From Acidobacteriaceae bacterium (lineage in GTDB: Bacteria > Acidobacteriota > Terriglobia > Terriglobales > Acidobacteriaceae), in the NCBI GenBank assembly GCA_030041435.1, contig JASHNW010000090.1, forward strand, positions 62,001-126,000: 64,000 bases of DNA, in the 5' to 3' direction. The translations under genes were made by a program, and so were the position numbers. This document shows positions 3,940 to 26,297 of the stretch, one piece after another; positions within the stretch are counted from its first letter, which is position 1; each line of letters opens with the position of its first letter. Under the pieces are notes generated by a model. That model did not search any database. It saw nothing but the letters and a program-made list of their open reading frames with translations, and had not been told where the DNA came from.

Positions 3940-4053
3940 AGCAGTTTCGGAATAAACGCAGACTTTTTGAGGCTGGCACAGGGCGGCTTTTTCTTGATTT
4001 AAAAGCCACTTGAGCGTGTGCCTTCGGTCTACACCAATTCCGAAACTGCTATA
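3937..4053. repeat. MITE-like element with 17-bp terminal inverted repeats
   Basis: A 117-bp non-coding element. The left end TAGAGCAGTTTCGGAAT (3937-3953) and the right end ATTCCGAAACTGCTATA (4037-4053) are inverted repeats with one mismatch. Inner segments are also partly self-complementary (GGCTTTT at about 3990 and AAAAGCC at about 4004), so the whole element could fold into one long hairpin. Both ends carry TA, which fits a TA-type target. It fills the gap between two convergent genes and supplies or overlaps the pump gene's stop codon. It could act as a terminator for both. Confidence 0.65.
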
Positions 4054-4145
4054 GCCGTTTCGCCATTGGGCGTGGTCCACCGCCGGCCGCGTCACGACTT
4101 TCCTTACCATGACGCCAGGCGGCAAGTGGGACGACGGTCTCAGGC

Positions 4146-24661: not shown

Positions 24662-25933
24662 ATGGCTGCTGCATACGAACTGCGATGTCGGGAATGCGGG
24701 AAGCGTTACGAGAACGCCCCGCTGTCGATCTGTGACGAATGCTTTTCTCCGCTGGAAGTGGTTTGCGACCTGGAAGCGGCGAAGCGGACGTTGACTCGTG
24801 AGGCAATTGCCGCGGGTCCGTCGAGCATGTGGCGCTACCAGGCGCTGCTGCCGGTTCCTGAGGACTACAAGCCCGTGACCCCGGCCGGATGGACGCCCCT
24901 GCTGCATGCGCCGCGGCTGGCCGAGCGGATTGGGGCGCGGAATCTGTTCATCAAGAACGACGCTGTCTGCCTGCCAACGCTGAGCTTCAAGGATCGCGTG
25001 GTGGCGGTGGCGCTGGCGAACGCGCAGATCTTCGGCTTCGACACGGTCGGCTGCTCGTCGACAGGGAACCTGGCAAACGCAGTCGCGGCCGGGGCGGCGC
25101 GGCTGGGACTGAAGACGTACATCCTGGTGCCGGGCGATCTGGAGCCGGCGAAGATTCTGAACACGCAGGTGTACGGCGCAACGCTGGTGCGGATTGACGG
25201 CAACTACGACCACGTGAACCGGCTGTGCTCGCAGATTGCGGACCGGTACAACTGGGGCTTCGTGAATGTGAACCTGCGGCCGTACTACGCAGAGGGATCG
25301 AAGACGGTGGGCTTCGAGATCGCGGAGCAACTGGGCTGGCGCCTGCCGGATAACGTGGTGGTGCCCATGGCCGGCGGTTCTCTGATCACCAAGATCCGCA
25401 AGGCGTTCAAAGAGCTGATCGCCCTTGGACTGGTCGAGGAGAAGGAGGTCCGGTTCTTTGGCGCACAGGCCACAGGGTGCTCGCCGATTGCAACAGCGGT
25501 GAAGACAGGCGCGGATCACATTGAGCCGCAGCGACCCGCGACAATTGCGCGGTCTCTGGCGATTGGGAACCCGGCGGACGGCGTCTACGCAGCGCGCGCC
25601 ATTCGCGAGAGCGGCGGCTGGGCCGAGGATGTGTCCGACGTGGAGATTGTTTCGGCAATCCAGGAACTGGCAGAAACGGAAGGCATCTTTACGGAAACAG
25701 CCGGCGGCGTCACCACGGCGGTGACGGCGCGGCTGTACGCGCACGGGCGAATTCATCCGGACGAGCTGACAGTGGCCTGCATTACCGGCAACGGATTGAA
25801 AACGACGGACGTGTTGCAGGGCGCATACGAGCAGCATGCGGCCATCCGCCCGCGACTGACCGACTTTGAAAATTATCTCGAAGAATGCAGCGAAGAGAAC
25901 GAGCTGGAACTGGGAGGAGCGTATGTCCGTTAG
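24662..25933 (+). CDS. Threonine-synthase-like PLP enzyme under SAM riboswitch control
   Basis: 423 residues from the ATG at 24662. An N-terminal zinc ribbon has four cysteines (C9, C12, C24, C27 in LRCRECGK and ICDECF). The fold-type II PLP domain has the Schiff-base lysine in TLSFKDRVVAVA (about 109), a phosphate/PLP loop SSTGNLANAVAAGAA, and a Gly-rich C-terminal motif VACITGNGLKTTD. By sequence it is a ThrC-family enzyme acting on O-phosphohomoserine. Its SAM riboswitch, and an 11-bp overlap with a MoaD/ThiS-type sulfur carrier gene, instead suggest sulfur assimilation. It might sulfhydrylate O-phosphohomoserine to homocysteine with a protein thiocarboxylate, by analogy with CysM/CysO. 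That role is inference; plain threonine synthesis is the alternative. Confidence 0.85.
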   Translation: MAAAYELRCRECGKRYENAPLSICDECFSPLEVVCDLEAAKRTLTREAIAAGPSSMWRYQALLPVPEDYKPVTPAGWTPLLHAPRLAERIGARNLFIKNDAVCLPTLSFKDRVVAVALANAQIFGFDTVGCSSTGNLANAVAAGAARLGLKTYILVPGDLEPAKILNTQVYGATLVRIDGNYDHVNRLCSQIADRYNWGFVNVNLRPYYAEGSKTVGFEIAEQLGWRLPDNVVVPMAGGSLITKIRKAFKELIALGLVEEKEVRFFGAQATGCSPIATAVKTGADHIEPQRPATIARSLAIGNPADGVYAARAIRESGGWAEDVSDVEIVSAIQELAETEGIFTETAGGVTTAVTARLYAHGRIHPDELTVACITGNGLKTTDVLQGAYEQHAAIRPRLTDFENYLEECSEENELELGGAYVR

Positions 25934-26297
25934 AGTCCTTTTGCCGAATGCATTTCAGAAGCACACCAACGGAACGCGCGAGATTCAGTCGAGCGCGGGG
26001 AATTTGCCGCAGCTGATCAGCGAGATCGAGACGACGTTCCCGGCGCTGCGCTCGCATCTGCGCGATGAGTCGGGGCAGGTGCGGCGATTCATCAACTTCT
26101 ACGTGAACGAAGAAGACATTCGTTTTCTCGGGAACGACAAATACTCGTTCAAGGATGGGGATGAGGTCTTAGTCATTCCCTCCATCGCAGGCGGGTGCTG
26201 CGCGGCAGGCGAGTGCGCGTCGCGTGGGATTCGATTGGCAGCGGTTTGCTCCTGTTGCTCTTATTGCGGGCAGGAAGAGTGCTGTTGCGGCGACTGA
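25923..26297 (+). CDS. MoaD/ThiS-type sulfur carrier protein with Cys-rich C-terminal extension
   Basis: 124 residues. Residues 1-91 form a ubiquitin-like MoaD/ThiS domain (RVLLPNAFQKHTNG, INFYVNEEDIRFL, DGDEVLVIPSIAGG) ending in the diglycine at 90-91 that is thiocarboxylated in such carriers. Unusually, the frame continues for 33 residues containing ten cysteines, starting CCAAGEC and ending CSCCSYCGQEECCCGD. A carrier must have a free C-terminal glycine, so the tail would need proteolytic removal, or the protein works differently. The gene starts inside the end of the PLP enzyme gene, so both are translated together under the SAM riboswitch. It ends 1 bp before the convergent TonB-like gene. 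No E1-like activator or Mec-type protease is in the window. Confidence 0.85.
   Translation: MSVRVLLPNAFQKHTNGTREIQSSAGNLPQLISEIETTFPALRSHLRDESGQVRRFINFYVNEEDIRFLGNDKYSFKDGDEVLVIPSIAGGCCAAGECASRGIRLAAVCSCCSYCGQEECCCGD

What the first reader, a model, noticed from the sequence alone, without database searches (positions are those of the whole stretch)
26193..26297. Ten-cysteine, 33-residue tail after the diglycine of a MoaD/ThiS-like protein
Seen: the frame continues past the Gly90-Gly91 end of the ubiquitin-like domain and encodes 33 residues with ten Cys, including CSCCSYC and CCCGD, before stopping 1 bp from the next gene. Known: sulfur carriers need a free C-terminal Gly; some are made with a short extension that a metalloprotease removes. 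Inference: the tail may be a metal- or persulfide-binding module, a cleavable cap, or a cysteine-sensing element that stalls when Cys-tRNA is low.
Basis: partly seen in the sequence, partly recalled or inferred. Interest (0 to 1): 0.8.

Follow-up and report, generated by a model that had tools for sequence, protein, structure and literature searches.

The report
Cysteine-rich cap on sulfur carrier
A soil bacterium makes a small sulfur-carrier-like protein with an extra cysteine-rich tail whose last stretch is strictly kept in several related genera, probably as a removable, metal- or thiol-binding cap that keeps the carrier idle until it is cut off.

Summary
Window 25923-26297 (+) encodes a 124-residue ThiS/MoaD-type protein (closest solved relatives: CysO sulfur carriers) whose frame runs 33 residues, ten of them Cys, past Gly90-Gly91. 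It is not a sequencing error: of 112 distinct thrC-linked orthologues, 26 (seven genus codes of one acidobacterial family) end in the same element, CCSYCxxExCxC, with eight positions invariant in 26 of 26 and pN/pS 0.12 against 0.15 in the core. Between GG and CCSYC lie 3-28 variable residues. Of the other 86 genes, 75 have a cap after GG, exactly two residues in 51, which points to an ancestral capped precursor. A JAMM protease, an E1-rhodanese and a second carrier lie elsewhere in the genome. Caps are Cys-rich in both carrier lineages (about 13-25% against 2-3% just after the stops). Best reading: a capped sulfur-carrier precursor, cleaved after Gly91 in trans by JAMM, whose distal tail is a conserved metal- or thiol-binding micro-module. 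A Cys-tRNA stalling role is unlikely here: Ser, Tyr and Glu are invariant too, and the next gene is convergent. Cleavage and metal binding are inferred, not shown.

The parts
25923..26195 (+). CysO/MoaD/ThiS-type beta-grasp carrier domain, residues 1-91, ending PSIAGG
   Evidence: Pfam ThiS 1.8e-9; PDB relatives M. tuberculosis CysO 3dwg_C 4.7e-17 and Amycolatopsis 4n6e_B 1.4e-15; AlphaFold model matches 4n6e_B, SAMP1 and CysO
26190..26195 (+). Gly90-Gly91: expected cleavage point and future sulfur-bearing C-terminus
   Evidence: Position in the frame. Present in the 112 counted orthologues, but those were required to contain PSIAGG to be counted
26196..26246 (+). Variable linker, residues 92-108 (CCAAGECASRGIRLAAV); poorly conserved; in one relative the equivalent DNA is a dispersed genomic repeat
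   Evidence: Distance GG to CCSYC is 3-28 residues in 26 genes. The linker of G009 has 17 further partial matches in its genome at E<=0.01, two over 53 nt or more and the rest about 19-40 nt. The window's own linker has one weak further match at E<=0.01 (0.0088) besides the paralogue's GG region
26247..26294 (+). Conserved C-terminal Cys element, residues 109-124 (CSCCSYCGQEECCCGD); consensus CCSYCxxExCxC plus 1-2 residues, with a Cys two before it in 21 of 26 genes
   Evidence: Eight of 12 positions invariant in 26 of 26 genes, pN/pS 0.12 against 0.15 for the core; alignment A2
26295..26297 (+). Stop codon TGA
24662..25933 (+). Divergent thrC-like PLP enzyme, partner gene overlapping the carrier start by 11 nt (likely ATG at 24662, by alignment; the ORF opens at GTG 24602)
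   Evidence: PALP 4.5e-69, TIGR00260 2e-84; 35% identical to the thrB-linked thrC of the same genome
26299..27057 (-). Convergent neighbour with TonB C-terminal domain; not part of the system, but leaves no co-directional gene directly downstream

Best explanation
The gene encodes a capped sulfur-carrier precursor of the CysO/SAMP1/MoaD kind, in overlap with a divergent threonine-synthase-like PLP enzyme. The 33-residue tail is a pro-peptide. A JAMM metalloprotease made elsewhere in the genome cuts after Gly91, the E1-rhodanese then loads sulfur on Gly91, and the PLP partner probably uses the thiocarboxylate (as CysM uses CysO). The distal 12-16 residues form an autonomous Cys micro-module, most likely binding a thiophilic metal (zinc first, then copper or iron) or cycling through disulfide or persulfide, and holding or reporting on the uncleaved carrier. 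Shown: reading frame, family, conservation, purifying selection, variable linker length, presence of JAMM, E1 and second carrier in the genome. Inferred: cleavage, metal or thiol binding, regulatory meaning, the partner's reaction.
For: ThiS domain and CysO as closest solved relative. Caps after GG are the family rule: of 86 distinct genes without the element 75 have a cap, 51 of exactly two residues; 11 end at GG. The residue after GG is C, S, A, T or V in 87 of 101 capped genes, which fits the steric limits measured for a JAMM protease there (PMC6043591, section 13 read). JAMM in 59 of 61 genomes including this one, with its active-site motif intact, in a row with CysM-like, carrier and MoeB/MoeZ-rhodanese genes; ThiF in 30 of 31. 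Element: C,C,S,Y,C,E,C,C invariant in 26 of 26, pN/pS 0.12 against core 0.15. GG-to-CCSYC distance of 3-28 residues means the element works without a fixed distance to GG. Cys enrichment of caps is general: element-bearing tails 187 of 737 residues, their linkers 49 of 385, other thrC-linked caps 53 of 273, CysO-type carrier caps 58 of 424, against in-frame post-stop controls of 8 of 311, 25 of 1007 and 14 of 691, and 16 of 10193 in the thrC-linked carrier cores. Among element-free genes Cys at +1 needs at least 22 changes on the tree, so it is not one inheritance.
Against: No cleavage, mass or metal data exist. The JAMM gene is not beside this gene. The window's tail matches no PDB chain at E<=10, and three tails match no Pfam family beyond one chance hit; the model gives no order after residue 89 (pLDDT under 50). 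A variable linker weakens simple steric gating of JAMM by a folded module. 86 of 112 orthologues do without the element, some inside or beside the clade that has it, so it is dispensable on evolutionary time; one clade of element-bearing genes is rejected (p-AU 0.0099, quick tree). The window's PLP enzyme scores over the threonine-synthase cut-off of TIGR00260, so a plain threonine synthase is not excluded, and the genome has one full-length Cys/Met-metabolism PLP enzyme, so no pathway gap demands a new sulfur enzyme.
Confidence: 0.6

Rival explanations
1. Cysteine-tRNA sensor: the run of Cys codons slows ribosomes when cysteine is scarce, so that the tail acts in cis on translation or transcription, as leader-type polycysteine ORFs do in mycobacteria.
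For: Ten Cys codons near the 3' end; Cys-rich but otherwise unconserved caps on CysO-type carriers, where an E1-like motif follows on the same strand in 52 of 59 loci. Precedent: Canestrari 2020, seen only as a reference entry in PMC9094748.
Against: In this gene Ser, Tyr and Glu are as invariant as Cys and most invariant residues vary in synonymous codon; the neighbour is convergent; 11 of 26 orthologues have a terminator-like hairpin within 160 nt after the stop against a shuffled mean of 1.45, though none of the 11 same-genus ones does. Three same-genus loci do show a start codon on the same strand about 50-60 nt on (by eye), not identified.
Confidence: 0.08
2. Permanent C-terminal domain: the protein is no longer a sulfur carrier but a stable partner or regulatory subunit of the PLP enzyme, with the Cys element binding metal next to it and GG inside the chain.
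For: Strict conservation of the element and overlap with the PLP gene; the PLP enzyme itself has an N-terminal CxxC...CxxC pair.
Confidence: 0.15
3. Docking or anchoring handle: the conserved end is recognised by a partner protein (JAMM, E1, PLP enzyme or a chaperone) through its sequence and not through metal or thiol chemistry.
For: Tyr, Ser and Glu are invariant and distance to GG does not matter; tail predicted unordered.
Against: Five invariant Cys in 12 residues is an unusual make-up for a pure docking peptide (inference). No partner that tracks the element is known; none was searched for genome-wide.
Confidence: 0.12
4. Meaningless read-through: loss of a stop codon or a repeat insertion appended neutral sequence.
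For: Fits the linker: its DNA in one relative is a dispersed repeat and linkers vary freely.
Against: The distal element has pN/pS 0.12 and eight invariant positions across seven genus codes, and is kept where only 3-4 residues separate GG and CCSYC (six of 26 genes).
Confidence: 0.03

Closest known systems
CysO of Mycobacterium tuberculosis (CysM-CysO-Mec+-MoeZ cysteine pathway)
   Same: Closest solved relative by sequence (3dwg_C, 4.7e-17) and third by fold; GG end; a CysM-like, JAMM, carrier and MoeB/MoeZ-rhodanese set exists in the same genome; pathway from PMC3227635 passages
   Different: The 93-residue CysO chain matches over its whole length, to our Gly91, with no tail; the window gene pairs with a thrC-like enzyme, not CysM; JAMM is in trans
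Capped sulfur carriers QbsE, PtmS2/PtmS3, HcyS and their JAMM proteases
   Same: Extra residues after GG that must be removed (PMC6006322 section 7: caps MV and C, protease PtmS1, QbsD as precedent; QbsE and HcyS details recalled)
   Different: PtmS2 and PtmS3 caps are two and one residues; here 33, with an invariant Cys element
Caldiarchaeum ubiquitin precursor CsUb-pre and CsRpn11
   Same: Nine-residue cap starting with Cys79, cut exactly after GG by a JAMM enzyme; bulk next to the cut and folding of the fused part affect cleavage (PMC6043591, passages and section 13)
   Different: Archaeal ubiquitin system, not sulfur transfer; its full cap sequence was not seen here
MoaX (MoaD-MoaE fusion) of M. 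tuberculosis
   Same: Internal GG must be cleaved, between Gly82 and Ser83, to give a working carrier (PMC4326299, abstract and passages)
   Different: What follows GG is an enzyme subunit, not a small Cys element; protease unidentified there
Polycysteine ORFs, cysteine-responsive attenuators of mycobacteria
   Same: Cys-codon-rich sequence linked to cysteine supply (title seen as a reference in PMC9094748; content recalled)
   Different: Short leader ORFs upstream of operons; here a C-terminal protein element with invariant non-Cys residues and a convergent neighbour

Membership tests
ThiS/MoaD ubiquitin-like family (PF02597) | Profile match over the curated cut-off and beta-grasp fold | tested here: met
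   38.5 bits against cut-off 22.5; model matches CysO, SAMP1 and MoaD folds
ThiS/MoaD ubiquitin-like family (PF02597) | Gly-Gly at the end of the domain | tested here: met
   PSIAGG at residues 86-91
Sulfur carrier with free C-terminal Gly | Chain ends at GG as encoded | tested here: not met
   33 further residues are encoded
Sulfur carrier with free C-terminal Gly | Thiocarboxylate on the terminal Gly | not testable with these tools
   needs mass spectrometry
JAMM-processed capped sulfur carrier (PtmS2/QbsE type) | Residues after GG, small residue first | tested here: met
   Cys first here; C, S, A, T or V in 87 of 101 capped orthologues
JAMM-processed capped sulfur carrier (PtmS2/QbsE type) | JAMM protease in the genome with intact active site | tested here: met
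   PF14464 1.1e-22 on C117; motif HSHPDHPAQWSQTD; NCBIfam desampylase 1.4e-17, under that model's cut-off
JAMM-processed capped sulfur carrier (PtmS2/QbsE type) | JAMM gene adjacent to the carrier gene | tested here: not met
   JAMM is on another contig beside the second carrier
JAMM-processed capped sulfur carrier (PtmS2/QbsE type) | Cleavage after GG | not testable with these tools
   biochemistry needed
CysO proper | Operon with cysM, mec and moeZ | tested here: not met
   That gene row holds the paralogue on C117; the window gene sits with a thrC-like gene
SAMP1 (NF041918) | Score over the equivalog cut-off | tested here: not met
   32.5 bits against cut-off 60
Known zinc-finger, metallothionein or other Cys-rich domain | Match to a described family or solved chain | tested here: not met
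   Three tails against Pfam at E<=10: one chance hit (0.16) to the linker of one; the window's tail against PDB: none
Cysteine-responsive attenuator | Regulated gene directly downstream on the same strand | tested here: not met
   Convergent neighbour; terminator-like hairpin after 11 of 26 orthologues

The most novel reading that the evidence does not exclude
Cys-rich C-terminal caps are a general control layer on sulfur carriers of Acidobacteriota: a pro-peptide that senses thiophilic metal or sulfur/redox state through its own thiols and so decides when JAMM frees the Gly-Gly end, evolved repeatedly on two carrier lineages and fixed as an invariant CCSYCxxExCxC module in one group. A bolder form, not excluded where the residue after GG is Cys, is that the Gly-Cys bond and neighbouring thiols allow thioester exchange with sulfide, giving a thiocarboxylate without an E1.
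Probability: 0.25. Interest if true: 0.85.

Novelty: new variant of a known kind. Interest (0 to 1): 0.62.

Why it matters
A strictly conserved Cys element in the cap, and Cys enrichment of caps across two carrier lineages, would mean that the cap carries information and that sulfur-carrier maturation is regulated. It also marks a thrC-like enzyme with its own carrier as a candidate thiocarboxylate-using enzyme. Isolates carry it by their record titles (Acidipila rosea, Silvibacterium bohemicum, Paracidobacterium acidisoli), so it can be tested directly.

Tried and rejected
Sequencing error or lost stop: rejected, since 26 distinct genes, isolates included, share the element.

Cys element elsewhere in genomes: one DNA pattern search found one match in each of 12 of 61 genomes, all inside the carrier gene by coordinates, and none with the reversed pattern (the sample left out some genomes that bear the element, such as G045 and G049). 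A six-frame scan of the 124 loci held then found only carrier loci (L052 in another frame) plus one chance hit in L111.

Linker as a repeat in the window: the guessed repeat core is not enriched in the window (1 match, 1.86 expected); the repeat claim rests on one relative.

Known domain for the tail: none. Order in the tail: none predicted.

One origin of the element as a strict clade: rejected (p-AU 0.0099). I read the pattern as early gain with later losses because the same invariant residues arising twice is unlikely, but two gains or transfer are open.

Literature: none of the titles and abstract starts listed by 8 paper searches was about Cys-rich caps of sulfur carriers, aimed at that, returned zero. 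Most subscription papers are not held, so this is no proof of absence in print.

Dropped before counts: one search examined 145 loci; L052 and L165 (same tail, frame shifted at GG), L055 and L112 (no PSIAGG; N in the frame) were set aside, leaving 141, of which 112 distinct; rows had to contain PSIAGG. The tree used 109 of 112: L155, L157 and L159 had too short a PLP part, and two of these bear the element. One search looked at 76 loci: 59 CysO-type carriers with a closed frame were kept; eight whose frame runs on, L132 (no hit), L218 (GG not found) and seven better matched by the thrC-linked query were dropped. Of the 59, 42 lie in genomes that one search covered, and 39 of these have the JAMM match within about 1 kb (coordinates compared by hand); 3 do not (L185, L205, L207) and 17 were not covered. 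Regions were chosen by hand from the lists.

Full report
What is there. The gene at 25923-26297 (+) encodes 124 residues; residues 1-91 hold a ThiS/MoaD domain ending in PSIAGG, and residues 92-124 are the tail CCAAGECASRGIRLAAVCSCCSYCGQEECCCGD with ten Cys. Its start codon lies inside the last 11 nt of a thrC-like PLP enzyme gene, so the two are probably translated together (sequence; inference). The next gene, 1 bp away, is convergent.

Not an error and not chance. I collected thrC-linked carriers from a scan of named genomes (80 loci kept of 111 confirmed), from unnamed relatives (87 of 100 genomes with some match; 233 of 398 family genomes at E<=1e-25; loci given for the best 30 of each) and from 20 regions chosen by hand. 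After merging identical genes, 112 distinct usable genes remained. In 26 the tail contains CCSYC, and in all 26 it goes on as CCSYCxxExCxC with one or two last residues. They fall in seven genus codes of one family (handles) and include the isolates Silvibacterium bohemicum S15, Acidobacterium sp. S8, Paracidobacterium acidisoli and Acidipila rosea (titles).

Two-part tail. The 12-residue element has Cys, Cys, Ser, Tyr, Cys, Glu, Cys, Cys invariant in 26 of 26 genes, with synonymous codons varying; pN/pS is 0.12 against 0.15 in the carrier core, and 0.098 against 0.126 within the window's genus (11 genes). GG and CCSYC are 3 to 28 residues apart, and this stretch is poorly conserved. In one relative (G009) the linker DNA has 17 further partial matches in its genome at E<=0.01 (40 of 50 candidates scored), so a dispersed repeat has been taken into the frame there; several other linkers look like related GC-rich repeats by eye, and the window's own shows only one weak match. 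So the element can sit at any distance from GG.

The ancestral state is a short cap. Of the 86 genes without the element, 51 have exactly two residues after GG, 11 end at GG, and 24 have other lengths. The first residue after GG is C, S, A, T or V in 87 of 101 capped genes, with and without the element. JAMM enzymes tolerate only limited bulk there: in Caldiarchaeum CsRpn11, Cys79Glu and Gly80Trp block processing (PMC6043591, section 13). In a Streptomyces strain use of capped carriers needs the JAMM protease PtmS1 (PMC6006322, section 7), and MoaX must be cut between Gly82 and Ser83 (PMC4326299, abstract and passages).

The machinery in trans. The genome has a JAMM gene on contig C117 with an intact motif, in a row with a CysM-like gene (TIGR01138 1.6e-105, under its cut-off), a second carrier and a MoeB/MoeZ gene with a rhodanese part: the recognisable CysM-Mec-CysO-MoeZ set. 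JAMM was found in 59 of 61 genomes and ThiF in 30 of 31. Presence of JAMM does not track the element, since JAMM is nearly everywhere.

Cys enrichment is wider than this gene. Seven of the 59 CysO-type caps hold three or more Cys, with no shared motif; 29 of 59 hold none. Cys at +1 among element-free thrC-linked genes (33 of 75 capped) needs at least 22 changes on the tree, so relatedness alone does not make the enrichment. The samples were chosen by hand from hit lists, and the counts treat distinct genes alike.

History. On a tree of PLP enzyme plus carrier core (109 rows, 24 with the element) the element needs at least four changes, and holding its bearers as one clade is rejected (p-AU 0.0099). 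Early gain with several losses is the likeliest reading.

What the partner may be. The genome has a second thrC directly followed by a homoserine kinase gene (TIGR00191 5.8e-70); the window's copy is 35% identical to it (33-35% over the three such copies compared) and differs around the PLP lysine. This makes the window's enzyme a candidate for a reaction other than threonine synthesis, as CysM is to CysO (inference). Against it: the window's copy scores higher on the PRK08197 threonine-synthase model than the thrB-linked one (293.9 against 234.4 bits, cut-off 303) and both pass TIGR00260.

How it most likely works. The tail is a pro-peptide; JAMM cuts after Gly91, E1-rhodanese loads sulfur, the PLP partner uses it (all inferred from known systems). 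The conserved end is most likely a metal- or thiol-binding micro-module that acts while the carrier is uncut. Because distance to GG is free, chemistry directly on GG or tight steric gating is less likely than an autonomous binding or reporting role. The predicted model shows a CysO-like fold (best PDB matches BexX/CysO, SAMP1, CysO) and nothing ordered after residue 89, as expected for a peptide that would fold only around metal or on a partner.

Confidence. That this is a real, selected element: about 0.97. That the tail is removed after Gly91: about 0.75. That the element binds metal or works through its thiols: about 0.55. That it is a regulatory sensor: about 0.25.

Noticed in passing
window 24662-25933: The thrC-like gene is a divergent paralogue (35% identical to the thrB-linked thrC on C119) with CLPTLSFKDR where the other has MNPTGSFKDT; candidate carrier-dependent PLP enzyme rather than the housekeeping threonine synthase.
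   Followed up: partly
L143 3153-6521: CysM-like, JAMM, CysO-type carrier (tail CWPQGQTRLRRKN) and MoeB/MoeZ-rhodanese genes in a row in the same genome.
   Followed up: yes
L184, L204, L209, L213, L128, L222, L134: CysO-type carriers in other Acidobacteriota with unrelated Cys-rich caps such as GCRCLGGCCCCPR and SGRMADCACSCCCCR; JAMM adjacency checked by coordinates for five of the seven (not L209, L213).
   Followed up: partly
L206, L208, L220, L223, L228, L229, L233, L234: CysO-type carriers whose frame runs on past GG into ThiF-like (E1) sequence, by eye: carrier-E1 fusions that would also need cleavage after GG.
   Followed up: no
L052 around 4000-4090 (same tail as L165): Acidipila sp. 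EB88: the Cys element is intact but in another frame than the carrier, shifted right at the GG codons; recent mutation, assembly error or frameshifting.
   Followed up: partly
86 thrC-linked carriers without the element: Caps of exactly two residues in 51 of 86, with Cys the commonest first (21) and second (11) residue.
   Followed up: partly
L012 1774-1849: Linker DNA is a dispersed genomic repeat taken in frame between GG and the Cys element.
   Followed up: partly
L086: Record titled Verrucomicrobia bacterium groups inside Granulicella and relatives on the tree; the title or binning is probably wrong.
   Followed up: no
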